59,143 nt of DNA from Desulfuromonas sp. TF (lineage in GTDB: Bacteria > Desulfobacterota > Desulfuromonadia > Desulfuromonadales > ATBO01), in contig NZ_KI421428.1 of NCBI RefSeq assembly GCF_000472285.1, forward strand, positions 93,851 to 152,993, written 5' to 3'. A model generated the notes under the pieces. It was not told where the DNA came from and did not search any database. It was given only the letters and a program-made list of their open reading frames with translations. Shown piece by piece: positions 4,680 to 53,796 of the stretch. Position 1 is the first letter of the stretch. The number at the start of each line of letters is the position of its first letter. Both the position numbers and the translations under genes were made by a program.

Positions 4680-6050
4680 GTGCGCAAACATAAGATTCTC
4701 GTAGTCGACGACGAACAACTCATCCGCTGGTCTTTGGAACAAAGTCTCAAAAAACAAGGCTATGAGGTGACCACTGCCGCTTCCGGCGAAGATGCCCTGA
4801 GGGTCCTGAGGGAGGAAACTCCGGATCTGATGCTTCTGGATATTCAGCTTCCCGGCATGAACGGCATGGATGTCCTGGAAAAGGTCAAGGACCTGGAAGA
4901 GGACATCATCGTGATCATGCTCACGGCTCTGGGAGTCCTGGAAACCGCGGTGAAGGCCATGCGCATGGGGGCCTACGACTACATCAACAAACCGTTCAAC
5001 CTGGACGAGCTGGCCATTGTCATTAAAAAGGCCCTGGAGACCGGCGAGCTCAAAAGAGAAGTGGCTCAGCTTCGTTCCGAGCAGTCCCGCAATTACGGCA
5101 TCTCCAAGATAATCGGCGTCAGCCGGCATATGAAAAACGTGCTTTCGATGGTGGAGAAGGTTGCCAGAAGCGACGCCAGCACCGTTCTGATTCAAGGAGA
5201 AAGCGGCACCGGCAAGGAGCTGATCGCCAAGGCCATCCATTACGAGAGCTCCCGGGCCGACAAGCCCTTCATGGCCATCAATTGTGCCGCGGTTCCCGAA
5301 ACACTGCTCGAGAGCGAACTGATGGGGCATGAGAAGGGAGCCTTCACCGACGCCAAGATGCTGAAGAAAGGCCTCTTCGAGATGGCCGACGGGGGCACCA
5401 TTTTCCTGGACGAAATCGGCGACATGGATCCGGGCATGCAGGCCAAGCTGCTGCGCGTGCTTGAGGAGCGCTCCTTCCGTCGGGTGGGAGGAACCAAGGA
5501 TGTCCAGGTCGACGTCCGCATCGTCTCCGCCACCAATAAGGATCTGCTCGCCGCCATCGAGGATAAGTCCTTCCGAAACGACCTCTATTACCGCATCCAG
5601 GTAATTCCCATTTTTCTTCCCCCCCTGCGGGAGCGGCGGGATGATATCATGCCCCTGGTTCAGCATTTTATCTCGCACTTCAATCGGGAATTCGGCAAGA
5701 ACGTTAAGAGCGTATCCAAGATGGCGGAGAAATTTCTGGTCGAATACAACTGGCCGGGCAACATCCGCGAACTGAAAAACATCATCGAGCGTGCCATTAT
5801 CCTGGAAAATGAAGAGACTATGCTGCTGGAACATCTTCCCCAGGAGATGGTGGCCAAGACCGGCGGCCCGGGCACCGGACCGCTCTCCCTCCGGCTGCCG
5901 CCGGAAGGGATCGATATCGAAGACGTGGAGAGGGAGCTCATACGCCAGTCACTGGAGGTTTCCGAAGGGAACCAGTCGAAGGCGGCCAAGAAGTTGAATC
6001 TGGGCATCGACGCCTTCCGTTACCGGATGAAGAAGTTCGGATTCTTATGA
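4680..6050 (+). CDS. NtrC-family sigma-54-dependent response regulator
   Basis: This is a cytosolic enhancer-binding transcription factor. It has an N-terminal receiver (phosphoacceptor Asp54 in LMLLDIQLPGMNG), a central AAA+ domain with Walker A GESGTGKE, Walker B GGTIFLDEIGD and the arginine-finger region, and a C-terminal Fis-type helix-turn-helix (about 415-455, NQSKAAKKLNLG). The sigma-54 contact loop reads GAFTDA rather than GAFTGA, a variant seen in a subset of the family. The GTG start has AGAGGA 8 nt upstream. It pairs with the heme-type kinase. Targets are not evident here; no convincing -24/-12 promoter was found by eye. Confidence 0.93.
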   Translation: MRKHKILVVDDEQLIRWSLEQSLKKQGYEVTTAASGEDALRVLREETPDLMLLDIQLPGMNGMDVLEKVKDLEEDIIVIMLTALGVLETAVKAMRMGAYDYINKPFNLDELAIVIKKALETGELKREVAQLRSEQSRNYGISKIIGVSRHMKNVLSMVEKVARSDASTVLIQGESGTGKELIAKAIHYESSRADKPFMAINCAAVPETLLESELMGHEKGAFTDAKMLKKGLFEMADGGTIFLDEIGDMDPGMQAKLLRVLEERSFRRVGGTKDVQVDVRIVSATNKDLLAAIEDKSFRNDLYYRIQVIPIFLPPLRERRDDIMPLVQHFISHFNREFGKNVKSVSKMAEKFLVEYNWPGNIRELKNIIERAIILENEETMLLEHLPQEMVAKTGGPGTGPLSLRLPPEGIDIEDVERELIRQSLEVSEGNQSKAAKKLNLGIDAFRYRMKKFGFL

Positions 6051-39236: not shown

Positions 39237-39268
39237 GTCTCACGCGGAGCCGCGGAGAGCGCGGAGGG
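39237..39268. repeat. CGCGGAG-type repeat upstream of the GxxExxY gene
   Basis: Repeating CACGCGGAG, CCGCGGAG, CGCGGAGG units directly follow the copy A terminator and provide the GGAGG ribosome site of the next gene. The same units occur after the gene at 39702-39733. Confidence 0.65.
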
Positions 39269-39271
39269 ACT

Positions 39272-39688
39272 ATGAAGGCATTGGATGATATCACAGGGGA
39301 AATAATCGATGCCTCGATCAAACTGCACAGGAATCTAGGGCCAGGATTACTGGAGAGCGTCTATGAAACCATTCTTTCTCAGGTTTTGTTGAAACGAGGA
39401 TTGGTGGTCGAGCGGCAGAAGCCGATTTGCTTCGAATACGACGGCATTCGTTTCGATGACGGTTTCCGAGTCGATCTGCTGGTGGAGGGATGCGTAGTTG
39501 TCGAATTGAAATCGGTGGAGAAAATAGCGCCGGTGCATGGTAAACAGTTGCTGACTTACCTCCGTCTTATGAATCTTCCAGTTGGGCTTCTGATCAATTT
39601 CGGAGCGACAACTCTCAAGGAAGGACTGCATCGCATTGTCAACAACCTTGATGCCTCAGTGTCTCCTGGGTTACGGGTGAACTCGTGA
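39272..39688 (+). CDS. GxxExxY-family protein
   Basis: This 138-residue protein carries the defining GPGLLESVYE motif (GxxExxY) and the nuclease-like core pattern FRVDLLVEGCVVVELKSVEKI (a PD-(D/E)xK-like D...ELK arrangement), ending LPVGLLINFG. The family is widespread, multicopy in environmental bacteria, and of unknown function; the fold suggests a nuclease. The start has GGAGGG 4 nt upstream within repeat DNA. It lies between copies A and B of the leader unit and is flanked on both sides by CGCGGAG repeats. Confidence 0.88.
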   Translation: MKALDDITGEIIDASIKLHRNLGPGLLESVYETILSQVLLKRGLVVERQKPICFEYDGIRFDDGFRVDLLVEGCVVVELKSVEKIAPVHGKQLLTYLRLMNLPVGLLINFGATTLKEGLHRIVNNLDASVSPGLRVNS

Positions 39689-39701
39689 AGAGGTGAATCA
39701 G

Positions 39702-39802
39702 ACTCACGCGGAGACGCGGAGATTGCGGGGAAACCATGAAAGATCTGATTGCTTCGATTTTTCTCCCTTGGGTCTCTCCGCGTCTCCGCGCCTCCGCGTG
39801 AG
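39702..39802. repeat. Inverted CGCGGAG/CTCCGCG repeat after the GxxExxY gene
   Basis: Left arm 39702-39733 (CTCACGCGGAGACGCGGAGA units) pairs with right arm 39775-39802 (TCTCCGCG, CCTCCGCG, TGAG). The 41-nt loop has no coding signature. The same family is found at 39237-39268 and, in diverged form, at 7032-7145. Confidence 0.75.
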
Positions 39803-39829
39803 AAGGTCCTGTATAAATTATCCTTTTCT

Positions 39830-39967
39830 TTGACATGAACCGCCGTTGCGGGTACTTTAGGGCATTCTTACATTTTGATTGCTCTGGAGTGTTTCAGATG
39901 AGAGTGCTGGGGGAAAAACTGTAGAGATTGATGAGGCCGCTTGGCGCCGTGAGGTGCGGGCGGTTTT
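39830..39967 (+). ncRNA. Promoter-leader-terminator unit, copy B
   Basis: TTGACA (39830-39835), 17-nt spacer, TACTTT (39853-39858), GATGAGAGT (39897-39905), and a hairpin CCGC / GCGG (39937-39940, 39960-39963) with inner GCGCC / GGTGC, followed by TTTTCTG. Inner stem differences from copy A keep pairing (two wobble exchanges). It ends 44 bp before the ORF6N gene, mirroring the layout of copy A. The hairpin region is also an open frame toward the gene (D-E-A-A-W-R-R), matching the small frame D-E-T-A-W-C-R of copy A. Confidence 0.6.
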
Positions 39968-40010
39968 CTGTTTACAGGCGAAACGCCAAGAACAAGAAGG
40001 AGGGGGAGCA

Positions 40011-40532
40011 ATGCTTATACCGGTAGAACGTATCGAAAAATCGATCCTGTTTCTCCGCGGCCAGAAGGTAATGCTGGATTCTGATCTGGCTGATCTCTAC
40101 GGGGTGACGACCAAACGCCTGAACGAGCAGGTGCGCAGGAATGCCGAACGGTTTCCACAAGACTTCCTGTTTCGGCTCAATGCCGAAGAGAAAGAGGAGG
40201 TGGTCGCAAATTGCGACCACCTCGCCAAGCTTAAATTCTCTCCGGTCCTCCCGTATGCTTTTACCGAGCATGGCGCCATAATGGCTGCCTCGGTGTTGAA
40301 TACCCCTCGGGCGGTGGAGGTCAGTGTCTATGTGGTACGAGCCTTCGTCAAACTGCGGGAGATGATCACCTCCAACACTGAAATTGCCCGGAGGCTGGAT
40401 GAGCTGGAGCAGAAGTACGATGCGCAATTCCGGGTAGTCTTCGACGCCATCCGGCAGATGATGATGCCGGAGGGGAAGGGGCGGAAGGAGATCGGTTTCA
40501 GGGTGGAGGAGGAAGGCGCGGCGTATCTGTGA
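40011..40532 (+). CDS. ORF6N-domain DNA-binding protein
   Basis: This 173-residue protein has an N-terminal ORF6N domain (about 5-95): IEKSILFLRGQKVMLDSDLADLYGVTTKRLNEQVRRN, then FPQDFLFRLN and a family-typical LPYAFTEHGAIMAASVLN. A coiled-coil-like C-terminal part follows. ORF6N/KilA-N proteins are phage- and island-borne DNA-binding proteins of mostly unknown role. The ATG at 40011 has AAGGAGGGGG upstream; the frame is open to 39879 through the leader hairpin. A 27-nt perfect palindrome lies within the coding region (40197-40223). Confidence 0.87.
   Translation: MLIPVERIEKSILFLRGQKVMLDSDLADLYGVTTKRLNEQVRRNAERFPQDFLFRLNAEEKEEVVANCDHLAKLKFSPVLPYAFTEHGAIMAASVLNTPRAVEVSVYVVRAFVKLREMITSNTEIARRLDELEQKYDAQFRVVFDAIRQMMMPEGKGRKEIGFRVEEEGAAYL
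40197..40223. promoter_or_regulatory. Perfect palindrome inside the ORF6N gene
   Basis: Arms GAGGTGGTCGCAA and TTGCGACCACCTC (13 bp each, no mismatch) surround a single A. It encodes the stretch EVVANCDHL. It may be an internal operator for the encoded DNA-binding protein, or an RNA hairpin. Confidence 0.6.
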
Positions 40533-40582: not shown

Positions 40583-40699
40583 GTGATAAGAAGCCGCTCT
40601 TTGTTGTTTGAAAACGGATACTTGGTTTGGGCCGACCCCGATAACCCCATGGTGAAGTGTCCGAGGTGTCGGGAGGCTGTGGAGGGTCGTGCTAAGTGA
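40583..40699 (+). CDS. Small CxxC peptide coupled to the Nudix gene (tentative)
   Basis: A 38-codon frame from GTG 40583 (no strong ribosome site) encodes a peptide with the tail PMVKCPRCREAVEGRAK, i.e. half of a zinc-ribbon (CPRC) with a basic end. Its TGA overlaps the GTG start of the Nudix gene by 4 nt (GTGA), the arrangement of coupled genes, which is the main reason to list it. It could equally be the 3' end of a longer decayed gene. Confidence 0.4.
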   Translation: MIRSRSLLFENGYLVWADPDNPMVKCPRCREAVEGRAK

Positions 40700-41094
40700 T
40701 TGATGTTGCCTGTGCGATTATCGAAATGGATGGATTGGTTTTAGCGGCTCAGCGCAGTGAAAATATGAGCCTACCGCTGAAGTGGGAATTCCCAGGAGGC
40801 AAGATTGATCCAGGGGAGTCTGCCGAGGAATGTCTGCGCCGTGAATTGGTTGAAGAGATGGGGATTCACGTGTCCGTGGGGAAAAGCCTGCCGGCCACCA
40901 CACACCAATATCCCAAGTTTGCGGTCACGCTTTATCCGTTTGTCTGTTCCATCGCGTCCGGTGAAATAGTCCTCCACGAACACGCTGCCATCGATTGGCT
41001 GCCGCCTGAGGAACTTCCCACACTGGACTGGGCCGAAGCAGATGTGCCGGTGATCGAGTCGTATCTTGCAGGCTGTGAGTTTTGCACCCCATGA
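40696..41094 (+). CDS. MutT-like Nudix hydrolase
   Basis: This 132-residue protein is MutT-like, hydrolysing nucleoside diphosphates linked to another group (8-oxo-dGTP in MutT). The Nudix box is canonical: GGKIDPGESAEECLRRELVEEMGI (GX5EX7REUXEEXGU). The protein opens MIDVACAIIEMDGLVLAAQR, as in MutT. GGAGG lies 10 nt before the GTG start. The stop overlaps the next gene's ATG by 4 nt (ATGA), so this Nudix is probably made with the helicase; in this context it may act on a nucleotide signal or protect a modified pool rather than serve general repair. Confidence 0.9.
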   Translation: MIDVACAIIEMDGLVLAAQRSENMSLPLKWEFPGGKIDPGESAEECLRRELVEEMGIHVSVGKSLPATTHQYPKFAVTLYPFVCSIASGEIVLHEHAAIDWLPPEELPTLDWAEADVPVIESYLAGCEFCTP

Positions 41095-44000
41095 ACCCTG
41101 TTGCCCCCGGCATATACGAAGCGCTCATTGATGAGTGCCTTCGCGATACGCTGGATCGGCATCCGGAGCTGCGAACCGTCTTCGGCAAAATCGACCCGGA
41201 AGAGCAGCCCGCCCGTTACGCGGCGTTCGTGGCCAAGGTGCTCGAACAGGCTCTGCGCGAAGAATCCGATCCGGAGAAAAGATTGGCCCTCTGCAACCAG
41301 CTCCTTGGACAAGTGGCTCAGGAGCCGGGCAGAAGTCATTTGGAAAAGCATCGACTCGTTCAGGAACAAAAACCGGTCCTTCTTGAAATCACGCCGCCGC
41401 ATTACGGCAAATCAGGCATTCCCCGTCCCCACACTCCCCTCGCCGAAAGCTCTCTCTTCACCGGATCTCCGCAGGAACCACAGCTTGGCCATGAACTGCT
41501 GGAAGAGATGCGGTCCGCCGATGGGGTGGATATCCTCGTTTCGTTCATCAAGTGGTCGGGGCTGCGTCTGCTGCTGCCGGCCTTCGAGGATCTGCGCGAC
41601 CGGCAGGTGCCGGTCCGGCTGATCACCACCTCCTACATGGGCGCCTCCGATGCCCCGGCGGTGGAGTGGCTGGCGCGGCTGCCGAATGTCAAGGTGCGCG
41701 TCTCTTACGATACCGAGCGTACCCGGCTCCACGCCAAGGCGTATCACTTCAAACGCAACAGCGGTTTCTCTACAGCCTACATCGGTTCGGCGAACATGTC
41801 CCAGGCGGCCATCACCAGCGGCCTGGAGTGGAACCTCAAGGTCACGGCGCAGGACATGGCGCATATCCTGGAGAAGTTTTCCGTCGAGTTCGAGACCTAT
41901 TGGAACAGCCGCGAGTTCGTCTCCTTCGATCCAGAGAGGCCGGAGCTATTTCGTGCGGCCATTGCTCGCGGCAAGAATGGAAACACCAATATCCCGGCAG
42001 TCTTCTTCGATCTGCGCCCCCACCCATTTCAGGAGCGCATCCTGGAGGCGCTGGAGCGGGAGCGCACCGCCCATGATCGTTGGCGCAACCTGGTTATCGC
42101 CGCCACCGGCACGGGCAAGACGGTGGTCGCCGCCTTCGACTTCAAGCGTTTCTTCGAACAGAGGCAGAATCAGGCCAGGCTGCTCTTCGTGGCCCATCGT
42201 CAGGAGATCCTCCAGCAAGCCCAGGCCACCTTTGCCAATGTCCTGCGCGACCAGAATTTCGGAGAACTGCAGGTCGGTCAGTTTCAGGCCACTCGCCTGG
42301 AGCATCTCTTCTGCTCTGTTGGCATGCTCACCAGTCGCCGCCTCTGGGAGCAAGTGGGGAGCGGGTACTACGACTACATCGTGGTCGACGAGGCCCACCA
42401 CGGCACCGCCAGCAGTTACCGGCCGCTCTTCGACCACTTTGCCCCGCAGATTCTCCTGGGACTGACCGCCACCCCGGAGCGGATGGACGGTGACAACGTG
42501 GCCGCCGATTTCGGCAATCGTTTCGCCGCCGAGATTCGTCTCCCGGAAGCTCTGGAGGAAAAACTCCTCTGTCCCTTCCACTACTTCGGCGTTGCCGACC
42601 CGATCGCCATCAACGGTGAGCAGTTCTGGCGCAACGGCAGGTACGATGCTTCGGCACTGGAAAACGTCTATGTGCTGGATAACGTCCGCGCCAAACAGCG
42701 CGTCGATGCCATCATTGCGGCGCTCCACCGCTACGAGCCCGACCTTGCCGCCCTCAAGGGAATCGGTTTCTGCGTCACCATCAAGCATGCCGAGTTCATG
42801 GCAGAGACCTTCACCAATATGGGAATCCCTTCCGCTGCCTTTGTTTCCGGGGTAGACGATGGCCGTTGCCGGGAACTGCTGGCTGATCTGAAAAGCGGCC
42901 GGCTCACCTTCCTCTTTACCGTGGACAAGCTGAGTGAAGGGGTGGACGTGCCGGAAGTCAACACGGTGCTTTTCCTCCGCCCCACGGAGAGCCTGACCGT
43001 CTTCCTCCAGCAGCTCGGGCGCGGCCTGCGCCATGCGCCGGGCAAGGACTGCCTCACCGTTCTCGACTTGGTCGGTCAGGCCCACCGCCGCTACCGGGTC
43101 GATACCAAACTGAAAGCGCTCCTCCCCCGTCACCGCTTTTCCATCGACAAGGAAGTAGAGCAGGATTTCCCCCACCTCCCGGCCGGCTGCTCGATTCAGC
43201 TCGACCGCCTCTCCCGGCAGTACGTGCTGGAGAACATCAAGGAGAACTTGGGCCGCCTGGCGGTGCAGGTTCCTGACCGGCTGCAGACTTTCACCAACGA
43301 AAGCGGCAAGGAACTGACCTTCGGCAACTTCATCCGCTACCACGATTACGAGCCGGAAGTGCTGCTGGCGAAGGAGTCCTGGTCGGGGTGGAAGGCCAAG
43401 GCACAGCTGGCGGCGATCCCCATGGACCCGGATCTGGCGCGGCTGAAAAAGACCCTGCTGCGCGCCGCATTTATCAACGGTCCGCGGGAGCTTGCCCGGT
43501 TGCGGCAGGTGCTTGCCAAGGTGGCAGAGGGTGCCATTGATGAGGCGTTGGCCCTGGCCGGGGATGCGGCCATGCCGGTGTACTATCGGTTCTGGGGAGA
43601 CAAGGGGAGCAATCTCGGCATCACCTCTCTGGATGATGCCTTCCGCCGCTTGGCCCGCAATCCGTCGATCCTTGCCGATCTGGACGAAATCCTCGCCTGG
43701 TCGCAGGACACCACCGAGGTCAGCGGTCAGATTCCGCAGCTCCCCTTCGCCTGCCCCCTGGAACTGCACGCCCATTACGGCGGCAAGGAGATTCAGGCGG
43801 TCTTTGGCCGGGCAAATCTGGAGACAGCCGGGCAGACCGGCGTGGGCTCGTTCCACTTCGCTGACGTAAAGACCTATGTGCTGCTGGTTACCTTTCAGAA
43901 GACCGAGAAGGAGTTCTCGCCGAGCACCATGTATGCCGATTACCCGATCAGCAGGGAGCTCATGCACTGGGAGTCGCAGGCGAATACCGCGCAGCATCAC

Positions 44001-44219
44001 ATTGACGGGCAGAACCTGATTCACCATCGGGAGCGGGGTTACACGATCTTGCTCTTTGCCCGTGACCAGAAGAGACGGAACAATGCCACGGTGCCGTTCA
44101 CCTATCTGGGGCCGGTGGATATGGTGAGTTTCGAGAGCGACCGGCCGATCAAGATGGTGTGGCGGTTGCGGCATCCGATGCCGGTGGAGATGTTTGAGGA
44201 TAATCGGCGGGGTGGGTAA
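41091..44219 (+). CDS. PLD-nuclease / SF2 helicase / DUF3427 protein
   Basis: This 1042-residue protein has three parts. Residues about 125-290 form a phospholipase-D-type nuclease (RLHAKAYHFKRNSG...YIGSANMSQAAI: HxK-N motif at about 213-233). Residues about 305-700 are an SF2 helicase with Walker A AATGTGKT (about 336), DEAH (about 431), TATPER and the motif VI region QQLGRGLRHAPGK. The C terminus (about 720-1042) is DUF3427-like. ATG 41091 overlaps the Nudix stop. Proteins of this build occur in defence islands and may cut or unwind invading DNA; I do not assign a named system. Confidence 0.88.
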   Translation: MNPVAPGIYEALIDECLRDTLDRHPELRTVFGKIDPEEQPARYAAFVAKVLEQALREESDPEKRLALCNQLLGQVAQEPGRSHLEKHRLVQEQKPVLLEITPPHYGKSGIPRPHTPLAESSLFTGSPQEPQLGHELLEEMRSADGVDILVSFIKWSGLRLLLPAFEDLRDRQVPVRLITTSYMGASDAPAVEWLARLPNVKVRVSYDTERTRLHAKAYHFKRNSGFSTAYIGSANMSQAAITSGLEWNLKVTAQDMAHILEKFSVEFETYWNSREFVSFDPERPELFRAAIARGKNGNTNIPAVFFDLRPHPFQERILEALERERTAHDRWRNLVIAATGTGKTVVAAFDFKRFFEQRQNQARLLFVAHRQEILQQAQATFANVLRDQNFGELQVGQFQATRLEHLFCSVGMLTSRRLWEQVGSGYYDYIVVDEAHHGTASSYRPLFDHFAPQILLGLTATPERMDGDNVAADFGNRFAAEIRLPEALEEKLLCPFHYFGVADPIAINGEQFWRNGRYDASALENVYVLDNVRAKQRVDAIIAALHRYEPDLAALKGIGFCVTIKHAEFMAETFTNMGIPSAAFVSGVDDGRCRELLADLKSGRLTFLFTVDKLSEGVDVPEVNTVLFLRPTESLTVFLQQLGRGLRHAPGKDCLTVLDLVGQAHRRYRVDTKLKALLPRHRFSIDKEVEQDFPHLPAGCSIQLDRLSRQYVLENIKENLGRLAVQVPDRLQTFTNESGKELTFGNFIRYHDYEPEVLLAKESWSGWKAKAQLAAIPMDPDLARLKKTLLRAAFINGPRELARLRQVLAKVAEGAIDEALALAGDAAMPVYYRFWGDKGSNLGITSLDDAFRRLARNPSILADLDEILAWSQDTTEVSGQIPQLPFACPLELHAHYGGKEIQAVFGRANLETAGQTGVGSFHFADVKTYVLLVTFQKTEKEFSPSTMYADYPISRELMHWESQANTAQHHIDGQNLIHHRERGYTILLFARDQKRRNNATVPFTYLGPVDMVSFESDRPIKMVWRLRHPMPVEMFEDNRRGG

Positions 44220-44251
44220 ATGCCTCTATCTGCTTCTATCAAGGGACAATT

Positions 44252-47200
44252 ATGAAAGTTGATTCAAGTCTCAAGCCTAAGCGAGGCAGTTCACGTCGTA
44301 AAGGTGATGAGTTTCAAGATCTAACCGCCCTAAAATCAATCTTGAATTATTATATCGAAGGTAAAGATTTCAAAGCGTTTCTCGAATACGAGAAGACGGA
44401 CGCTATAGATGACATTGTAATTTTTTCCGGAAACAAAATTCGTGCAATTCAAGCAAAATACGCAGTAGACCCTTTGGCCGTTTATATTCAAAATGATTTT
44501 ACGGAAAAGGACAGCCGTACATATTTTGGGCGCTATGCTGCTGGATGGCGTAAGGCACGTCAGATTCATCCTGGGATGGACATAGATATCGAACTGGTCT
44601 CAAATCGTGGCCGTGACTCGTCGCTCAAAGGGATAATCGGAGCAGTGGGGGTGTTTCTCCCCGAATTCGTTGAAGGAAGGAAACGCAAAGAAGCCAAAAA
44701 ATTTCGCGACGATCTTCAGAAAGCATGTGCATTTACAGGGACTGATGCATCAACACAATTTCAAGAGTTCTTACGGTCGTTTCAATTTCAACTCAGTCAG
44801 AGGTCACTTAAAGAATTACGCGAACATATCGAAGGTGAACTGCTTGATCACCAACTAGGAATAACCGATAGAGCGGTTTATCATAAGCTAAAAGATCTTG
44901 TCGAACGACATGCCATAGAGATTCATGATCCAATAACACCATCAATCCTTGATGAGATATTTCGCCAGGCACAAAGTAGATTTCTCCTGCCGCAGCAATT
45001 CCAAGTCGATCAACAACGATTTGTTCAATTGGAGTCGTTTGAAGTAGCACTATCGCGTCTGATTAAAGAAACGGAATCTGGGTACATTGTAATAACAGGT
45101 CTACCCGGCAGCGGAAAATCCACCTCCCTTAGTCAATTCTTCAATACGCTAGAAAAAGGCCAGCAGTACGCAATTTGTCGCTACTTCTGTTTCGTTAGTC
45201 CAAATGATGACAACGCTCGTTTACGCCTCGAAGCCGAGTCTCTTCGGATTAATTTGCTTTCAGAGTTTCATAATCAATTTGGTCATTTACTTCCTCGCCG
45301 ACACGATTACAGTGAGCGCCGCTTTACTGAAGTCCTCGCTGAACTTGGTCAAATCCTGTCGGGAGACAACTCAAAGCTGGTAGTGCTGCTGGATGGTCTT
45401 GATCACGCAGAACGTGACCCGCACGTTAAGGACAGTGTGTTACGTGCGTTGCCGACGAGCTTACCGCCGGGAGTAATAGTTGTAATTGGCACTCAAGAGC
45501 TGAAAAGCTGGGAGCCTTTGGCCTTAAGCGAAGGGCGTAAGCAACGTCACATCCCAATTCCTCTCTTTTCTTTGCCCCAGACGAAGTCCTATCTCCTTGA
45601 GAAGCACGGCTTGGTACTGCAAGACGAAGCAGTCAGAAAAATCTTTAATAAAAGTGATGGTCTACCTCTCTATCTTCGTTATGTAACTATCTGGCTTTCT
45701 GCGCATAACGGAGATGTCGAGAGTCTTGATCATATGCCAGAAGCTGTAAATGGCGACATACGAGATTATTACGAACGGTTATGGGCGAATCTTGAGCGCG
45801 ATGGGATGGCTCTCGCTCGATATCTTTCCGGTGTGCTGGCTGTTCTGCGCTTTCCAGTCGGCGAGGCGGAATTATTTGAGTTCCAAGACGAAGTTCGTTT
45901 GTTGGATCTTCCGGCTACGATGAAAGCCGTTTCCCACCTTCTGCGCCATCAGGCGGGACAGGTTTCCATTTTTCACGACAGTTTTCGTGTTTTTGTCCTT
46001 GCAAAAATCGACGCGGTAACCCGTCGCCGCATAACTCGAACTATCTCAGAGAAATTGAAAACCGAGCGAGGCAGTGCGCGTTGGTTTGGGTTTGCTTTCA
46101 GTTATGCACTTGATGCTGGCGATGAACAATACGTTCTGTCTGAGGTTAATCGCCAGTTCGTTGACTTTGCGCTTCAACATTGCAGACCTGCTGATGATAT
46201 TTTTTCAGCTATTGACACTGCCGTAAAGGCGGCAGTCCGCCAGAAGGCTCTAATTGAACTGTCTAGGTTGGGTTCTTTGCACTATCGGACGCATGAACGG
46301 CTCGAACATCAATTTGACCATAGTATGCTGGCAAAAGTCCTGCTCAAACTTGGTCGTGTGGAAGATGTTCTAGGCTATTGTTGTCACTGGCATGAAAGAC
46401 ATTGGCTGGTGGATACAGATGTAGCCATGCAAGTTATGGTTTGGTGTGCGGCAACAAGCCGACTTGAACTCGGGGAAAAGTTATTTGACATATTCTGTGA
46501 AACCCATGCACATCATGAATGGGAGCAGCGTTCTGATTTTGTAAAACTTGCTCGTGTAGTGGCCATTTATTCAAAGAGACCTCACAAATTCCTGCAGTGG
46601 ATATCAGGATTGAAGTTCACTCCTGATCTTATTGAGAGGAAAGATTATTTTGCCCCTGGATATGCACCGCATCTCGCTGCATTTCTTGAATCATATTTTC
46701 TTTACCGGCCAAACAGCGATTGGCCGCGCCTTAAGAAGATAAGTCGGATCTTTCCCAATCACCTTGTCAGGCATTATATCCTGCGTTTGGTCGCACGCCA
46801 TTGTTCCCAAGAAATTCTTCGGACAGAGCTTGAAGAATATCTTACAAATACTCCGGTCGGTGAAAATCTTGAGATTGCAGGTTACGCTGTAATGGCAGGT
46901 TTGCCCGGCGAACAAGTCCGGAAATTGGCAGGACCAGTGAAGTTACCCCCAAATAAGATAATCGGTGATACTCGCCGTGAATCCCAAGAAGCTGACGTAG
47001 ATGCGTTTTGGTGGTCCGCGTTAGTGCTTGGCTATGAGGATGACCAAAAGACTATCAACCAAGTAAAACATCACATTGGCAATGATGGGACAATGTGGTC
47101 TGGATTTCTCAGCTTTATGCTACAAGCTGGGCTTTGTCTTGGCCGAGTAGCAGCAGGGAAACCTGATGACCTTTACATAAGAGCTGTTTCGGCACTAGAC

Positions 47201-50200
47201 GAGCTCGCTTTGGCTGGTACAGAAGATCAGCCCCAAGAAATGGACACCTTGAGGGCTTGCAGACCGATGTTGCCAGAGTTGCTCTCTCGCCTTACGGGTT
47301 GTATCGCTGTCGTAAGCCCGCGTGATCTTGAAGATTGGTTCGATAAGCTTCTGAGGTTACGTCAGAGCGAAATATGGACGTCCCATTGGGGTATTGGCGA
47401 ATCTTACGTCGACTACTCGTTTGAGCTAGCAATTTGGGAGAGGCTGACTGATATTCCCGGTGCAAGTGTGAAGCTCCTTCCCATTCTTCGCGATTGCGCA
47501 TCTACCTATACCGATACAAGATCTCTTAAAGCCGGCTCCAGATCAGATCACTTCCTGTGGCTGTCATACATTGCCGCAAAATCCGGGTGGAGAGCAGATG
47601 CAGAAAAATGGCGTGAGAAAGCAATCGCATGCTCCCTCACATATGGATATCGTAAGGACGCTACTCTCGATTGCCTGATAGATGTACTTGATCTTCTCAA
47701 TGAATTTGAACCTGCCCTGACGCTTCCCCGCGCTGCCGCCATTCTTGAAATGGTGAAGTGGATGAACGCTGCAACTGACGGTAGAGGAACGAAGCACTTC
47801 GAGCAATCCGCATTCAATGTAGTCTTGAAAAGAAGCCGTGAAGCGGCGTTCAGCCTTATTCGATATTTCAGAGAGCATGCTGGTCGTTGGAAGATGCTCG
47901 ATTGCCTGGAAAAATTCATCCTTAGTGTTGAAACGGGTGATCCTGAGCTGCTATGGGTTCTCAAGGATGTTTTTTCACCCCATTTTGTTGAACGTGGTCG
48001 CCATCCGAAGCAACTTGAGCGCGCTGCTCGCCACCTTAAGGATTTAGGAGCACGCTTAGAGCCTGAACAATCTGAGATATGGCGTGTGCGTTTCGAGGCG
48101 TTCATTCGCACGCATATCGATCCAGGCTGGTGGCCGGATGACATATGGGCAGTTGTTCAGAAAGATGAAAAAAGGGCCGCATACCACGCTCGTGAACCAT
48201 ATGGTGATGACTCTGCAATACCAAAAGAACTAATTTTAAATGGCCAGCCGATTCAGAAAGAAGAGCTCGAGCAGAAGCTGTCGAGGTCGGTTGAGTCATA
48301 TTGCCGTACAATGGAGCTACTGCGAGCTGAAAATGGGCATTTCTATGAACCTAAGCTTGTAAATTCTGCTTTTGAGTATCATGCATCGCGATCAAGTTCA
48401 ATCTCTGAAGCACATCGTCTAAGGACAATCGCAGAAGCGGATGATTCCGTGAAATCTGAAGCCCTTCTCATTCTCGCACATCGCCTATTCGATTATGGAG
48501 AATACGATTCAGGCTATGAAACTTTACTTCTCGCTTATCAACGAGATACGAAGTATTACCCGGGTGAAGAAGATGCTGCTCCGATTCTAAAAGAACTGTG
48601 CGACCGCGATCAAGGAAGAATAGCAGATTTCATAGTACAACGATGCGATGAACATTTAATGAAAAGTTATGGTGGATTTGATATACCGCGGTTTATCGCT
48701 CGTTATTTCTCTGCTTGCGGTGATGTGGCATCACTTCGGAAAGTTTTCGAGGATTACCTGCGGCATTGCCAAGAATTATTTGAGCACTTGCCTCAACAGG
48801 AATTGTACGGATGGCTCCGCGATTATGTTGAAGGGAAAACGATCGAAGATGAGGAAATTGTAAATTTCCTCATTGATTTGCTTGGTGAGCCTGAGATCGA
48901 CCAAGCAAAGCGTCTTCTTCGTGTGCTTACGGCACTTTCAAAGTCGCTGCCCGAAATTGTTTGCCGAATCTGCTGCCACCGGCTTAAAGATGCTGAACCA
49001 CTTTTGCGAGAGCGTCTTGAAATACTGCTAGATGCCGTTTCTTGCTTGGCCCCCGACGTTATCGCGCCGCATTTGGGGTTGCTTGTCCCATTACTTCAGA
49101 AGCCGAATTTTCGATTCCGGATGACGATTATCGACGTCGTTAAACGGGTTTCGAAATCACTATCGCTGCCAGAATCGGTAGTTGAGGCTGTCAACGAAGC
49201 TGAACGCACTTACTCTCCGTTGATCAAATATCCCTATCGTCGTTTTCTTCTAACTCCACCGTCATCTGGTTTTATTGCATTCCTTAAGAGAGGGGCGCTG
49301 TTTAGCCTGCTAAAGGAGATTCAAGGTGTTAGCGACCTTCTGCAGGTGAAATTGAATATAGTGATTGCATACATTGAGCAAGGTCTTATGAAACAAGGTT
49401 GGAAACTTGCTGATGAACAAGATCGACTTAAAGATGAATGGGAAGGAAAGGCACATGGTGGTCATGTGATTTGGTTCATTCCATCTTTTCATACACTGGT
49501 TTCTGAACTTCTCCAGAGCTTCATCCATGAGGCTTTAGAAAATGGAAGCTACGGAAATGATGTACTAAATGCCATATTTAACGTTGTGAGAAGTGGCGAC
49601 CCATCCTTTGTTGCAGAGTTGTCACGACAAAAGCCTTTAAATATCCAAGCCTTGAATGTGAAAAATTCATCAGAGTGGATAAAGGAAATTGAACGGCAAT
49701 CGCCGAAGCAGGTTGATGTTTTACCTCCAGATGAATGGACGACTGTTTATGAGGAAAGATTTTTGACACAGACAAGCGATTCGAGTTCTAAGCTCTGTTC
49801 CGAATTAAAGGTCCGCACCCTCCTTGTCTCGCCTGAATATAGCTCTGATGAAGATTTATGGCCTGATCCCTCAGATTGGTCTGATGTTATTCCTTGTGTA
49901 CATCCGGAAGAAAGGCTTACGATCGATGCTGCTGCTAATATTATTTCGAAAGGAGCAATTTTTGTAGAATCAGATCAGAATTATCCAATGTATCCATTTG
50001 TAGCTCTCCATGTGAATAACCAGGGTTTTGTGGGTTATAGACACATGCCATATATTCATCCGATGTGGGTCGGTAGATACAGCCTTGAAGTCGAGGGGTG
50101 TCAAATTAAACACGATGAACAAATTATTGCTTATTTTGAGGAATGGCAGGAGGGCTATGAAGATGAAGCGTACAGCCGCGACCTTCTATCTGCCGGCATC

Positions 50201-50377
50201 CGTTTAATCGTAAAAACGGACTGGATACGTAGGATGCTCAAAGCCGCTAGTTATTCAATGGCGATGTGGACTTCAGAAAAGCGTATGAAAAGAGATGCTT
50301 GGACAAGAAAGGCTCCTTCAGAGATTTCGGAGCATGAACGGTATTCAGTTTATATTCCCTATGGGCCAGCTAAATAA
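44252..50377 (+). CDS. Giant nuclease-STAND NTPase (Avs-like), AT-rich
   Basis: This 2041-residue protein begins with a Cap4/DUF4297-like nuclease (about 17-150: DEFQDLTALKSI; Glu45, Asp53/Asp54, QAK at 67-69, a PD-(D/E)xK pattern). A STAND/NACHT-like NTPase follows: Walker A GLPGSGKST at 283-291 and Walker B LVVLLDGLDHAE at about 376-387. The remaining roughly 1400 residues are helical, repeat-like, without a recognised domain. The combination matches antiphage Avs proteins, in which the C terminus recognises a phage protein and the nuclease is triggered. Start has AAGGGA 6-9 nt upstream. The gene is clearly AT-richer than its neighbours, a sign of transfer. Confidence 0.85.
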   Translation: MKVDSSLKPKRGSSRRKGDEFQDLTALKSILNYYIEGKDFKAFLEYEKTDAIDDIVIFSGNKIRAIQAKYAVDPLAVYIQNDFTEKDSRTYFGRYAAGWRKARQIHPGMDIDIELVSNRGRDSSLKGIIGAVGVFLPEFVEGRKRKEAKKFRDDLQKACAFTGTDASTQFQEFLRSFQFQLSQRSLKELREHIEGELLDHQLGITDRAVYHKLKDLVERHAIEIHDPITPSILDEIFRQAQSRFLLPQQFQVDQQRFVQLESFEVALSRLIKETESGYIVITGLPGSGKSTSLSQFFNTLEKGQQYAICRYFCFVSPNDDNARLRLEAESLRINLLSEFHNQFGHLLPRRHDYSERRFTEVLAELGQILSGDNSKLVVLLDGLDHAERDPHVKDSVLRALPTSLPPGVIVVIGTQELKSWEPLALSEGRKQRHIPIPLFSLPQTKSYLLEKHGLVLQDEAVRKIFNKSDGLPLYLRYVTIWLSAHNGDVESLDHMPEAVNGDIRDYYERLWANLERDGMALARYLSGVLAVLRFPVGEAELFEFQDEVRLLDLPATMKAVSHLLRHQAGQVSIFHDSFRVFVLAKIDAVTRRRITRTISEKLKTERGSARWFGFAFSYALDAGDEQYVLSEVNRQFVDFALQHCRPADDIFSAIDTAVKAAVRQKALIELSRLGSLHYRTHERLEHQFDHSMLAKVLLKLGRVEDVLGYCCHWHERHWLVDTDVAMQVMVWCAATSRLELGEKLFDIFCETHAHHEWEQRSDFVKLARVVAIYSKRPHKFLQWISGLKFTPDLIERKDYFAPGYAPHLAAFLESYFLYRPNSDWPRLKKISRIFPNHLVRHYILRLVARHCSQEILRTELEEYLTNTPVGENLEIAGYAVMAGLPGEQVRKLAGPVKLPPNKIIGDTRRESQEADVDAFWWSALVLGYEDDQKTINQVKHHIGNDGTMWSGFLSFMLQAGLCLGRVAAGKPDDLYIRAVSALDELALAGTEDQPQEMDTLRACRPMLPELLSRLTGCIAVVSPRDLEDWFDKLLRLRQSEIWTSHWGIGESYVDYSFELAIWERLTDIPGASVKLLPILRDCASTYTDTRSLKAGSRSDHFLWLSYIAAKSGWRADAEKWREKAIACSLTYGYRKDATLDCLIDVLDLLNEFEPALTLPRAAAILEMVKWMNAATDGRGTKHFEQSAFNVVLKRSREAAFSLIRYFREHAGRWKMLDCLEKFILSVETGDPELLWVLKDVFSPHFVERGRHPKQLERAARHLKDLGARLEPEQSEIWRVRFEAFIRTHIDPGWWPDDIWAVVQKDEKRAAYHAREPYGDDSAIPKELILNGQPIQKEELEQKLSRSVESYCRTMELLRAENGHFYEPKLVNSAFEYHASRSSSISEAHRLRTIAEADDSVKSEALLILAHRLFDYGEYDSGYETLLLAYQRDTKYYPGEEDAAPILKELCDRDQGRIADFIVQRCDEHLMKSYGGFDIPRFIARYFSACGDVASLRKVFEDYLRHCQELFEHLPQQELYGWLRDYVEGKTIEDEEIVNFLIDLLGEPEIDQAKRLLRVLTALSKSLPEIVCRICCHRLKDAEPLLRERLEILLDAVSCLAPDVIAPHLGLLVPLLQKPNFRFRMTIIDVVKRVSKSLSLPESVVEAVNEAERTYSPLIKYPYRRFLLTPPSSGFIAFLKRGALFSLLKEIQGVSDLLQVKLNIVIAYIEQGLMKQGWKLADEQDRLKDEWEGKAHGGHVIWFIPSFHTLVSELLQSFIHEALENGSYGNDVLNAIFNVVRSGDPSFVAELSRQKPLNIQALNVKNSSEWIKEIERQSPKQVDVLPPDEWTTVYEERFLTQTSDSSSKLCSELKVRTLLVSPEYSSDEDLWPDPSDWSDVIPCVHPEERLTIDAAANIISKGAIFVESDQNYPMYPFVALHVNNQGFVGYRHMPYIHPMWVGRYSLEVEGCQIKHDEQIIAYFEEWQEGYEDEAYSRDLLSAGIRLIVKTDWIRRMLKAASYSMAMWTSEKRMKRDAWTRKAPSEISEHERYSVYIPYGPAK

Positions 50378-50515: not shown

Positions 50516-50827
50516 ATGACCTCTCCTGAGACCTATATAAATAACTTCACCCACCTAAACCGCGCCCCCGGCCCCGTGTGGGGCGAAGCCACCAGAAAAC
50601 GCGCCCCGCACAAACCGATCCTGCTGCTTGCAGTGCTGGATCTGGTGCATCGCGGCGCCATCACCTCGCCATTCATCGACGTCACCGGCGATCTGGTGGA
50701 GCTAAACGAGCTGTTCAACCTCTATTGGCGGCGGATCATCCCCCTGGGGCAGACCAGCAGCATCGCCTTTCCCTTCTCCCGTCTCGACAGGGAACCATTC
50801 TGGGAACTGGTGCAGCAACCGGACTGA
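50516..50827 (+). pseudogene. Truncated N-terminal domain of an HNH restriction-endonuclease-like protein
   Basis: This 103-residue frame (RAPHKPILLLAVLDLVHRGAI..., then ELNELFNLYWRRI and PFSRLDREPFWELV) matches the N-terminal domain that precedes the HNH nuclease in a group of restriction endonucleases, including ones reading phosphorothioate or modified DNA. The nuclease part is absent: the frame stops at 50827 and repeat DNA follows. I found no continuation in other frames. The ATG at 50516 has GGGGA upstream, so a short peptide might still be made. Confidence 0.65.
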
Positions 50828-51589: not shown

Positions 51590-51817
51590 CAAACCCCAGC
51601 TCAAAACCAACCTAATCGAACCTCTCCAGCTCCCCCCGTCGATCCGCAAGGAAGAAACGAGAGACACCCTCCCGGCCCCAGCGTCCGGACCTGAAGCTCC
51701 CCCTGTTCCACATCCAATACCGGCCGATCTCCAGGATGGTTTTTGTTTTGCCGGTGCTTGGGCGCGTGCTATATATATGTAAAATCAACTTCTTGTGGAA
51801 TGATTGTCGGAGTCGCC

Positions 51818-52102
51818 ATGGACAGGCTCATCGAAGAACATCGTGAAGAAATCAAGCACCTTGCCGCCCTGCGAGGCGCCAGTCGGGTTCGGGTTTTCGG
51901 TTCCAGGGCGCGCGGAGAGGCCCGTCCGGACAGTGATGTGGATATCCTGGTGGACCTGGAGAAAGGGCGCTCCGCCCTGGCACTGGGGGGGCTGCTGATG
52001 GACCTGCAGGATCTTCTGGGCAAGAGGGTCGATGTGTTGACACCGGCGGCCCTGCACCCGAAAATCCGGGAAAACATTCTCAAGCAGGCTGTTGACCTGT
52101 GA
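51818..52102 (+). CDS. mntA: MntA-type nucleotidyltransferase antitoxin
   Basis: This 94-residue minimal nucleotidyltransferase has the active site GSRARGEARPDSDVDILV (GSx10DxD). In MntA/HepT systems the enzyme AMPylates the HEPN toxin on a Tyr near its RNase motif, silencing it. ATG 51818 has CGGAG 6 nt upstream; upstream in-frame codons at 51743 and 51800 are less likely. The stop overlaps the hepT start as TGATG. An 81-bp piece of this gene is repeated at 53931-54011. Confidence 0.9.
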   Translation: MDRLIEEHREEIKHLAALRGASRVRVFGSRARGEARPDSDVDILVDLEKGRSALALGGLLMDLQDLLGKRVDVLTPAALHPKIRENILKQAVDL

Positions 52103-52440
52103 TGCTCAGCGAACGAGATCAAGTTTATGTCGAGCACATGCTCGAATGTATCGGCCGCATAGAACGATACGTCGACGATGATCGCGGCCGGTTCATGCAG
52201 TCTGAGATCGTTCAGGATGCCGTCGTGCGAAACCTGCAGACGTTGGCCGAGTCTAGCCAGCGCTTGTCCGATGTCGCAAAACGATCCCAGCCCGGAATCG
52301 ACTGGCGCGCCATCGCCGGCTTTCGCAACGTCCTCGTGCATGACTACCTGGGCCTTGACCTCGACACGATCTGGCTGGTGATCGAACAGGACCTCCCGCA
52401 GCTCAAAAATGGTCTCGAAGCGATGATAGAAGGGGAATAG
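52102..52440 (+). CDS. hepT: HepT-type HEPN ribonuclease toxin
   Basis: This 112-residue all-helical HEPN protein carries RNVLVHDY (Rx4HxY), the RNase motif with the Tyr that MntA modifies. HepT is an RNase toxin. Its ATG at 52102 shares a base with the mntA stop (TGATG), so synthesis is coupled to the antitoxin; GTG 52099 is an alternative. Size and order match the family exactly. Confidence 0.92.
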   Translation: MLSERDQVYVEHMLECIGRIERYVDDDRGRFMQSEIVQDAVVRNLQTLAESSQRLSDVAKRSQPGIDWRAIAGFRNVLVHDYLGLDLDTIWLVIEQDLPQLKNGLEAMIEGE

Positions 52441-52626: not shown

Positions 52627-53796
52627 ATGAAGCGAGAGCTCCAGGGCAGATACGTGACCATATCGACGGTGGGTGAGAAGGCCCAGGCCTTCGTGCCCGC
52701 GCCGCTGCCGCCGCGTCCGCCCATCGACTGGACGCCGGAGCTGCGCAGCAAGTTCGACCAGGCGCTGCTGGCGCTCGGACGGCTGGACAGCGTCTCGACT
52801 CTGCTGCCGGACACCTCTCTGTTTCTCTACATGTACGTCCGCAAGGAAGCGGTGCTCTCCTCCATGATCGAGGGGACACAATCCTCGCTGTCGGACCTGC
52901 TGCTGTTCGAGCTGGATCAGGAGCCGGGTGTCCCGCTGGATGATGTGCGGGAGGTCAGCAACTATGTCGCGGCCCTCGATCACGGCCGGCGCCTGCTGGA
53001 AGAAGGGCTGCCGCTGTCGCTGCGGCTGTTCCGGGAGATCCACGGCGTGCTTCTGACCAAGGGCCGGGGCAGCAATCAGACCCCGGGCGAGTTCCGGCGC
53101 AGTCAGAACTGGATCGGCGGCACCCGGCCGGGTAACGCGGCCTTCGTTCCACCTCCGGCCGAAGAGGTGCTGGAGTGCATGAGCAAGCTGGAACTCTTCC
53201 TCCATGACCAGCCGGAGCCGACCCCGGTGCTGCTCAAGGCGGCGCTGGCCCATGTACAGTTTGAGACGATCCACCCGTTCTTGGACGGTAACGGCCGTCT
53301 GGGGCGTCTGCTGATCACGCTGCTGTTGTGCGAGCAGAAGGTGCTGCGAGAGCCGATGCTCTACCTCAGCCTCTACTTCAAGACGCACCGCCAGTATTAC
53401 TACGAGCTGCTCAACAACGTGCGACTGACCGGCGACTGGGAAGCCTGGTTCGACTTCTTCGCCGAGGCGGTCATCTTCACCGCCACCCAGGCGGTGGAAA
53501 CCGCCCAGCAGCTCCTCGACCTGTCCAACCAGGATCGAGACAAGATCAGCGGTCTGGGCCGGGCGGCGGCATCAACCCTGCAAGTTCACCGGGCTCTGAT
53601 GGAGCATCCCCTCGCCACCTCGGGCTCGCTGGTTGAGAAGACCGGCATCACCTCGGCGACGGTCAACAAGGCGCTCGGCCACTTGGAGCAGCTCGGCATC
53701 GTGAAGGAGCTGACCGCTCGGAAGCGCAACCGACTGTTTAGCTACGCGGGCTATATCGAGATCATGAGCCGTGGCACGGAGCCGCCAGGCAGGTAG
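52627..53796 (+). CDS. Fic-family protein with C-terminal winged helix
   Basis: Fic proteins transfer AMP from ATP onto protein hydroxyls. The 389 residues contain the active loop HPFLDGNGRLGRLL (canonical HPFx(D/E)GNGRxxR), an N-terminal inhibitory helix SSMIEGTQSS ((S/T)xxxE(G/N), so class II, self-inhibited), and a C-terminal winged helix (about 310-380: LVEKTGITSATVNKALGHLEQLG). Targets unknown. ATG 52627 lies just after GGCAGG. Position beside a toxin-antitoxin pair suggests an accessory stress or defence role. Confidence 0.93.
   Translation: MKRELQGRYVTISTVGEKAQAFVPAPLPPRPPIDWTPELRSKFDQALLALGRLDSVSTLLPDTSLFLYMYVRKEAVLSSMIEGTQSSLSDLLLFELDQEPGVPLDDVREVSNYVAALDHGRRLLEEGLPLSLRLFREIHGVLLTKGRGSNQTPGEFRRSQNWIGGTRPGNAAFVPPPAEEVLECMSKLELFLHDQPEPTPVLLKAALAHVQFETIHPFLDGNGRLGRLLITLLLCEQKVLREPMLYLSLYFKTHRQYYYELLNNVRLTGDWEAWFDFFAEAVIFTATQAVETAQQLLDLSNQDRDKISGLGRAAASTLQVHRALMEHPLATSGSLVEKTGITSATVNKALGHLEQLGIVKELTARKRNRLFSYAGYIEIMSRGTEPPGR

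What the first reader, a model, noticed from the sequence alone, without database searches (positions are those of the whole stretch)
40583..50377. Possible four-gene defence operon: CxxC peptide, Nudix, PLD-helicase-DUF3427, nuclease-STAND
Starts and stops overlap by 4 nt twice (40696-40699 and 41091-41094), then a 32-bp gap to the giant STAND gene, all on one strand. A Nudix hydrolase coupled to a PLD-nuclease helicase is a known type of partnership in islands, but the addition of a nuclease-STAND gene could make one combined system with a nucleotide-level step and two nucleases. The STAND gene has different base composition, so it may instead be a separate cargo.
Basis: inference. Interest (0 to 1): 0.7.

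Follow-up and report, generated by a model that had tools for sequence, protein, structure and literature searches.

The report
Restriction enzyme with nucleotide-cleaning partner
The window holds a two-gene cassette in which an enzyme that probably cuts DNA carrying methylated cytosine travels with a small enzyme that probably destroys the methylated building blocks, a pairing found across several bacterial phyla that may explain how such cells avoid cutting their own DNA; the large neighbouring gene is a separate passenger.

Summary
The ORFs, the 4-nt overlaps and the 32-bp gap are real, but the four-gene operon is not. The 38-aa CxxC ORF has no relative in the loci fetched. The STAND gene is absent near all 78 helicase relatives, occurs in 1 other of 178 genomes, and has different composition: a separate passenger. 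What remains is a two-gene cassette. The 'helicase' is a SauUSI-type type IV restriction enzyme (profile match to SauUSI, E=1.3e-149; the pocket Asp and Trp are kept). The Nudix is of the NudG type, whose characterised members hydrolyse 5-methyl- and 5-hydroxymethyl-dCTP, the precursors of exactly the bases SauUSI cuts. Linked pairs occur in 28 of 80 SauUSI-like genomes sampled (about 0.15 expected), in three of five phyla, in different gene orders. SauUSI itself, in S. aureus, starts 2 bp after such a Nudix gene. The same Nudix subfamily also abuts SRA-HNH nucleases and is fused to HNH nucleases. Best reading: the Nudix keeps modified dCTP out of host DNA so that the nuclease does not attack self; attack on phage nucleotide pools is the main rival. 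Activities are inferred from relatives; nothing was assayed. A 2020 figure legend notes MutT homologues beside SauUSI in Streptococcus.

The parts
40696..41094 (+). NudG-type Nudix hydrolase, predicted 5-methyl/5-hydroxymethyl-dCTP pyrophosphatase (GTG start); part of the cassette
   Evidence: PF00293 1.8e-19; complete Nudix box; PDB relatives 5X1X 1.8e-27, 3GWY 2.2e-27, NudG 2RRK 8.7e-22; Asp116 aligned with NudG Asp118, MutT has Asn; PADLOC candidate PDC-S07 1.2e-49
41091..44219 (+). SauUSI-type type IV restriction enzyme: PLD nuclease, SF2 ATPase, DUF3427/SRA-type reader (ATG overlaps the Nudix stop by 4 nt); part of the cassette
   Evidence: PADLOC mREase_IV 5.2e-192; SauUSI 7CLG 3.8e-81 by sequence, 1.3e-149 by profile, rank 1 by fold
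44252..50377 (+). STAND NTPase with nuclease-like N-terminus (Avs-like): NOT part of the cassette, separate cargo
   Evidence: no co-occurrence; GC3 0.399
40583..40699 (+). 38-aa CxxC ORF: not supported as a gene
50516..50827 (+). 5' remnant (103 aa) of an SBD-HNH type IV nuclease gene, right after the STAND gene; neighbour, not part of the cassette
   Evidence: 82% identity to residues 9-111 of the intact L019 gene, no C-terminal HNH part found downstream; NF045808 1.4e-7

Best explanation
A two-gene modification-dependent restriction cassette. SHOWN by sequence: a SauUSI-type enzyme (PLD nuclease, ATP-driven SF2 motor, SRA-type reader with the base-reading Asp and Trp) whose start overlaps the stop of a NudG-type Nudix hydrolase gene; the pairing recurs across phyla and the same Nudix subfamily also sits beside or is fused to SRA-HNH/HNH nucleases. 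INFERRED from characterised relatives: the restriction enzyme shreds DNA with 5-methyl- or 5-hydroxymethyl-cytosine; [quoted passage not shown] PROPOSED: the Nudix is the self-protection arm. Modified deoxycytidine nucleotides (from turnover of methylated host DNA, from shredded phage DNA, or made by a phage) would otherwise be polymerised into the host chromosome and turn it into a target. Instead of methylating self, this system keeps the mark out of self at the level of the nucleotide pool.
For: (1) Restriction enzyme: profile of 25 relatives matches SauUSI end to end (114-1003 to 30-919, E 1.3e-149); SauUSI Asp858 and Trp868, which read and stack on the flipped base (PMC7913695), align with window D953 and W963, invariant in the 25. 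(2) Nudix: 62 of 63 Nudix proteins found near SauUSI-like genes have Asp at the NudG Asp118 position (the 63rd is a truncated frame). 3GWY, the second-closest solved relative, hydrolyses 5-Me-dCTP (4.8e6 per M per s) and 5-MeOH-dCTP (4.4e6), with much lower activity on canonical NTPs (PMC5158307); NudG prefers 5-methyl-dCTP (1,300 against 47 for CTP, same paper). SauUSI cleaves m5C and hm5C DNA (PMC3874153). (3) Coupling: 28 of the 60 best Nudix places in 80 SauUSI-like genomes lie within 3 kb of it, 0.15 expected; linked in 11/15, 9/22 and 8/16 genomes of three phyla. Arrangements differ: 47 upstream, 8 downstream same strand, 3 downstream opposite among 204 loci. (4) SauUSI of S. aureus (= 7CLG) starts 2 bp after the gene for 5X1X, such a Nudix. 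(5) Other nuclease types: SRA-HNH L221 and the A3 family with a predicted SRA fold (Foldseek to SUVH5 SRA 3.7e-7), 23 of 34 viral-contig loci with an adjacent Nudix; HNH-Nudix fusions L230, L249. (6) The host has one cytosine-C5 methyltransferase gene, a possible source of 5-methyl-dCMP.
Against: No activity was measured for any protein here. The Nudix is not obligatory: 0 of 10 and 0 of 17 sampled genomes in two phyla have it linked, and many close relatives (84-90% identical helicases such as L003-L011) lack it. SauUSI alone suffices in E. coli (PMC3874153), though E. coli has its own NudG. The own genome holds a second NudG-like Nudix elsewhere (G000:C14, 6.9e-37). SauUSI Tyr831 (methyl contact) is not Tyr here, and the Glu of its H(X)K(X)4E motif is Lys224. 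The A1 profile was built from linked Nudix genes, so it favours them. Of the 34 SRA-HNH loci, 9 had been reached through a Nudix and 12 of the 14 other positives are one 75%-identity cluster; 11 loci have none.
Confidence: 0.55

Rival explanations
1. Same two enzymes, but the Nudix is a weapon: it drains the phage's 5-hydroxymethyl-dCTP pool, starving phages that replace cytosine, while the nuclease destroys what is still made. Two-layer attack on hypermodified phages.
For: 3GWY is as active on 5-MeOH-dCTP as on 5-Me-dCTP (PMC5158307); [quoted passage not shown] both genes are in defence-type contexts.
Against: Hydrolysing a fast phage-fed pool needs high expression (inference); 5-methyl-dCTP, not a phage speciality, is an equally good substrate of 3GWY.
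Confidence: 0.22
2. Generic house-cleaning: a NudG/MutT-like antimutator that happens to travel with restriction genes or limits mutation during restriction stress, without functional link to m5C.
For: Own genome has another NudG-like copy; many SauUSI-like genes lack a linked Nudix; some plasmid copies are annotated 8-oxo-dGTP diphosphatase.
Against: 28 linked against 0.15 expected, and weaker (housekeeping-type) Nudix hits were never linked, 0 of 22; coupling to several nuclease types and fusions; cytosine-type Asp in 62 of 63.
Confidence: 0.15
3. One reading: one four-gene system of CxxC peptide, Nudix, PLD-helicase and nuclease-STAND.
For: Same strand, short gaps, no terminator-like site in the gap.
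Against: No STAND relative near any of 78 helicase relatives, 1 other STAND relative in 178 genomes; similarity ends at the helicase stop codon; different composition.
Confidence: 0.03
4. The Nudix degrades a signalling nucleotide that controls the helicase or the STAND protein.
For: Nudix enzymes can act on ADP-ribose and related molecules (general knowledge; mentioned in PMC7159879).
Against: I saw no nucleotide-signal synthase gene in the cassette; the Nudix belongs to the (d)CTP-type group by best relatives and by the Asp.
Confidence: 0.05

Closest known systems
SauUSI (type IV restriction enzyme, S. aureus; PDB 7CLG)
   Same: PLD nuclease, SF2 ATPase, coupler, SRA-type reader in the same order, aligned over nearly the whole protein; and SauUSI too lies 2 bp after a Nudix gene
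   Different: The window enzyme is a more distant relative (22% identity in the fold alignment with 7CLG) and 92 residues longer; Tyr831 and the motif Glu differ; the SauUSI papers read here do not treat the Nudix (0 uses of the word in PMC7913695 and PMC3874153)
NudG / Orf135 of E. coli and Q5LBB1 of B. fragilis (3GWY)
   Same: Nudix box and the Asp118-type position; [quoted passage not shown]
   Different: 40% identical to the 3GWY segment; below NCBI's NudG cut-off (102.6 of 156 bits); sits in a restriction cassette
MutT homologues beside SauUSI homologues in Streptococcus (Bell, Wolf, Koonin 2020, PMC7641849; author names recalled)
   Same: The adjacency itself, in a figure legend (passage seen)
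   Different: Called 'DNA repair', not analysed in the passage; 0 uses of Nudix or dCTP in that paper; no link to modified dCTP
SRA-HNH modification-dependent nucleases (TagI, ScoMcrA, EcoKMcrA)
   Same: Same SRA reader principle; the A3 family is of this kind and carries the same Nudix
   Different: Different nuclease, no ATPase; TagI paper has 0 uses of Nudix or MutT
Avs / AVAST STAND proteins
   Same: NTPase region of the neighbouring STAND gene (residues 251-746) matches Avs1b
   Different: 98.7 of the 1,500 bits required; not part of the cassette

Membership tests
SauUSI-type type IV restriction enzymes | PLD domain, SF2 ATPase, SRA-type reader in one chain, in that order | tested here: met
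SauUSI-type type IV restriction enzymes | PLD catalytic residues: HxK and GSxN | tested here: met
   H217, K219, G235, S236, N238 invariant in 25 relatives
SauUSI-type type IV restriction enzymes | Glu of SauUSI motif H(X)K(X)4E | tested here: not met
   Lys224 in the window; an invariant E249 further on may serve (my inference). So I claim relatedness by whole-chain homology and 'works like SauUSI', not identity of the catalytic motif
SauUSI-type type IV restriction enzymes | Walker A and DExH | tested here: met
   G343, G345, K346, T347; D436, E437, H439 invariant
SauUSI-type type IV restriction enzymes | Modified-cytosine pocket: Asp858 and Trp868 | tested here: met
   D953 and W963 invariant
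SauUSI-type type IV restriction enzymes | Modified-cytosine pocket: Tyr831 (methyl contact) | tested here: not met
   not Tyr in the profile alignment; the alignment is gapped there
SauUSI-type type IV restriction enzymes | Cleaves m5C/hm5C DNA with ATP | not testable with these tools
   needs purified protein
NudG-type (d)CTP Nudix hydrolases | Nudix box GX5EX7REUXEEXGU | tested here: met
   translation; invariant positions
NudG-type (d)CTP Nudix hydrolases | Asp at the NudG Asp118 position rather than MutT Asn119 (role in base choice recalled) | tested here: met
NudG-type (d)CTP Nudix hydrolases | NCBIfam NudG equivalog cut-off (156 bits) | tested here: not met
   102.6 bits: a relative, not NudG itself
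MutT 8-oxo-dGTP diphosphatase | NCBIfam mutt cut-off (97.9 bits) and Asn119 | tested here: not met
   82.5 bits; Asp at that position
AVAST (Avs1b) for the STAND neighbour | NCBIfam NF041810 cut-off (1,500 bits) | tested here: not met
   98.7 bits

The most novel reading that the evidence does not exclude
Modification-dependent restriction has a previously unrecognised second arm: a dNTP-pool sanitiser (NudG-type Nudix, in some loci perhaps MazG-type enzymes) that keeps 5-methyl- and 5-hydroxymethyl-dCTP out of the host chromosome, so that self is defined by absence of the mark at the precursor level. The same arm was recruited by unrelated nucleases that share an SRA reader (SauUSI-type and SRA-HNH), and is sometimes fused to the nuclease; SauUSI of S. 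aureus itself is a two-gene system.
Probability: 0.45. Interest if true: 0.85.

Novelty: new variant of a known kind. Interest (0 to 1): 0.7.

Why it matters
Type IV enzymes have no methyltransferase partner, and how a cell avoids cutting itself is usually answered only by 'self lacks the mark'. A nucleotide-pool guardian coded next to the nuclease would make that answer mechanistic and testable. It would also mean that SauUSI, a main barrier to DNA transfer in S. aureus, is half of a two-gene system whose two proteins both already have solved structures (7CLG, 5X1X), with no paper joining them in the searches made here apart from a figure legend on Streptococcus.

Tried and rejected
CxxC peptide as a zinc-ribbon partner: no relatives. 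STAND as partner: rejected. MazG-type all-alpha pyrophosphatases as the main partner: they occur beside some SauUSI-like genes (7 loci in a cluster named by eye; L059 Pfam MazG-like 3.1e-20), far less often than the Nudix, so noted only. The 10 'unlinked' Nudix genes of the partner subfamily were fetched: two lie against SRA-HNH genes (L218, L221), one (L215) against a short ORF that looks EVE-like to me (no Pfam match); beside the others I recognised no nuclease by eye, which counts against a purely defensive role. SAD_SRA family in 64 genomes: 1 hit, L311, with no Nudix by profile; the SRA-HNH plasmid locus L226 also has none. In one search two larger, mainly antisense clusters (34 and 23 loci) were set aside as shadow ORFs of the helicase and Nudix genes, and one of 9 loci as frame shadows, by my judgement. 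The mirror-tree correlation of Nudix and helicase is high (r 0.77, 0 of 2000 permutations) but only 0.13 among pairs more than 40% apart, so it mainly reflects close relatives. One search stopped with an error and mishandled minus-strand loci; one search replaced them (rows for L002-L079 stand). Left out of the control: G394 and G645 because of the 80-handle limit, genomes with truncated hits, and the lower-scoring (about 300-bit) SauUSI clade. Of 29 plasmid records with a Nudix hit 13 were opened: in 12 a SauUSI-like, HNH or 'restriction endonuclease' gene is the neighbour of the Nudix or fused to it, one of these (L233) a broken SauUSI-like frame; the thirteenth (L228) has none by annotation; the 16 others, several of them chromosome-sized or annotated nudG/mutT, were not opened. 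Six of 18 strong viral-contig Nudix loci have no such nuclease beside them.
Full report
WHAT IS THERE. The second ORF is a Nudix hydrolase with a complete Nudix box; the third is PLD nuclease + SF2 ATPase + DUF3427; the fourth is a 2041-aa STAND NTPase with a weak nuclease-like N-terminus. The 38-aa CxxC ORF finds no relative in the fetched loci.

THE STAND GENE IS SEPARATE. In 78 loci around helicase relatives no ORF matches the STAND protein (55 of them have at least 3 kb and 46 at least 6 kb downstream). DNA similarity to the closest relative L002 covers window 40709-44217, to L003 and L056 41091-44218, and ends at the helicase stop codon. One other of 178 genomes of the phylum has a STAND relative, and that genome is not among those with a SauUSI-like gene. 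GC3 is 0.40 against 0.77. After the STAND gene lies a 103-aa remnant of an SBD-HNH gene, 82% identical to an intact gene that follows the helicase in L019; so the STAND gene may have come in between the two (inference).

THE HELICASE IS A SAUUSI-TYPE ENZYME. PADLOC mREase_IV 5e-192; SauUSI (7CLG) by single sequence 4e-81, by profile 1.3e-149 from PLD to reader, first by fold search (AlphaFold model mean pLDDT 80.9). SauUSI's reader is an SRA domain in which Asp858 contacts and Trp868 stacks on the flipped base (PMC7913695, passages). These align with D953 and W963, invariant in 25 relatives. Tyr831 and the Glu of the H(X)K(X)4E motif are not kept.

THE NUDIX IS OF THE 5-SUBSTITUTED dCTP TYPE. 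Its closest solved relatives are 5X1X, 3GWY, 3EES and NudG 2RRK. It carries Asp where NudG has Asp118 and MutT has Asn (the role of this residue in choosing the base is recalled). 3GWY (Q5LBB1) hydrolyses 5-Me-CTP, 5-Me-dCTP and 5-MeOH-dCTP at 4-7e6 per M per s, 5-OH-dCTP 50-fold less (PMC5158307, abstract and passages). NudG prefers 5-methyl-dCTP. SauUSI cleaves m5C and hm5C DNA (PMC3874153, passages). The two predicted specificities match.

THE COUPLING IS REAL AND BROAD. With PADLOC's full-length model I searched samples of five phyla: hits in 21 of 395, 64 of 348, 18 of 378, 26 of 296 and 31 of 247 genomes. Among 204 helicase loci (some genomes occur twice) the Nudix is the commonest neighbour family once shadow ORFs are set aside: 58 loci, 47 upstream, 8 downstream same strand, 3 downstream opposite. 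In 80 genomes with a SauUSI-like gene, 28 of the 60 best NudG-like places lie within 3 kb of it, about 0.15 expected; 0 of the 22 weaker ones do (the profile A1 was built from linked genes, and matches weaker than 2.2e-21 were not used). Linked genomes: 11 of 15, 9 of 22, 0 of 10, 0 of 17, 8 of 16. On a helicase tree linkage changes at least 25 times among 150 scored tips. 62 of 63 of the Nudix proteins near SauUSI-like genes keep the Asp.

SAUUSI ITSELF. In S. aureus record NZ_CP077890 (L227) the Nudix ORF ends at 5354 and the next ORF starts at 5356. The first is identical to 5X1X over 130 residues, the second matches 7CLG over its first 499 with only the very end differing. The record is a linear contig that carries repeated and inverted copies and in which the SauUSI frame is broken further on; the adjacency should be checked in a finished genome.

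OTHER NUCLEASES WITH THE SAME NUDIX. L221: SRA-HNH gene (SAD_SRA 1.2e-40) overlapping a NudG-type Nudix frame. A3 family: N-terminal domain with predicted SRA fold (model pLDDT 68 overall, about 80 in that domain; Foldseek to ScoMcrA 8e-11 and SUVH5 SRA 3.7e-7, TM 0.74 by target) and C-terminal HNH like EcoKMcrA. In viral contigs 23 of 34 A3 loci have the Nudix within 500 bp; 9 of these 34 had first been reached through a Nudix, 12 of the other 14 positives form one 75% cluster, and at 75% identity 9 of 20 clusters have it. From the Nudix side, 10 of 18 strong viral-contig hits touch an A3-type gene, one a SauUSI-like gene (L252) and one an HNH gene (L250); six do not. Of the six best SauUSI-like viral-contig loci, three have the Nudix right behind. 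HNH-Nudix fusions: L230 (487 aa) and L249 (497 aa). Plasmids: 12 of 13 opened records, out of 29, have such a nuclease as neighbour.

MECHANISM. Best reading (0.55): self-protection through the nucleotide pool. Main rival (0.22): attack on the phage pool. Both use the same chemistry and are separated by the tests listed. Against any essential role: many relatives lack a linked Nudix, and SauUSI alone restricts in E. coli, which has NudG. The host has one cytosine-C5 methyltransferase and a second NudG-like gene.

PRIOR ART. PMC7641849 (passage) notes in a figure legend that small 'DNA repair' proteins beside SauUSI homologues in Streptococcus are MutT homologues. PADLOC lists the Nudix as candidate PDC-S07. 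The SauUSI structure paper, two reviews and the CMoRE paper have 0 uses of 'Nudix' in their main text. Xu et al. 2011, the first SauUSI paper, is not held and was not read. Searches for the combination found nothing else.

Noticed in passing
window 39238-39803: A GxxExxY gene (39272-39688) is flanked by copies of a CTCACGCGGAG-type repeat, one direct (82%) and one inverted (95%), as if the gene moved with its repeats.
   Followed up: partly
window 50516-50827; L019:13539-14543 and others: SBD-HNH genes, related to phosphorothioate-dependent type IV nucleases, lie in the flanks of 11 of 78 SauUSI-like loci, in L033 and L067 directly before the Nudix; the window has a truncated one.
   Followed up: partly
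L059:1004-1339; L112; L313: All-alpha NTP pyrophosphatases (MazG type) beside SauUSI-like genes or next to a Nudix + restriction gene cluster on a Priestia plasmid: possibly a second, unrelated pool-cleaning partner.
   Followed up: partly
L215:5341-5871, L228:5441-5971: NudG-type Nudix genes followed by a short ORF that in L215 looks like an EVE (modified-base reader) protein to the eye; Pfam gave no match for either.
   Followed up: partly
window 39879-40532: ORF6N-domain gene matching PADLOC defence candidate PDC-S05 at 3.9e-52.
   Followed up: no
window 51743-52440 and 52627-53796: Two small overlapping genes that look like an MNT-HepT toxin-antitoxin pair, then a Fic-like gene (reading of the translations, no family scan).
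   Followed up: no
G000:C11:95260-96393: The host carries a cytosine-C5 methyltransferase gene (PF00145 1.2e-37) together with a predicted m5C-dependent nuclease.
   Followed up: no
L230:3921-5384, L249:4906-6399: HNH nuclease and NudG-type Nudix fused in one polypeptide.
   Followed up: partly
L087, L039, L041, L101: A cluster of neighbours that looks like Vsr mismatch endonuclease by eye beside some SauUSI-like genes; not confirmed.
   Followed up: no
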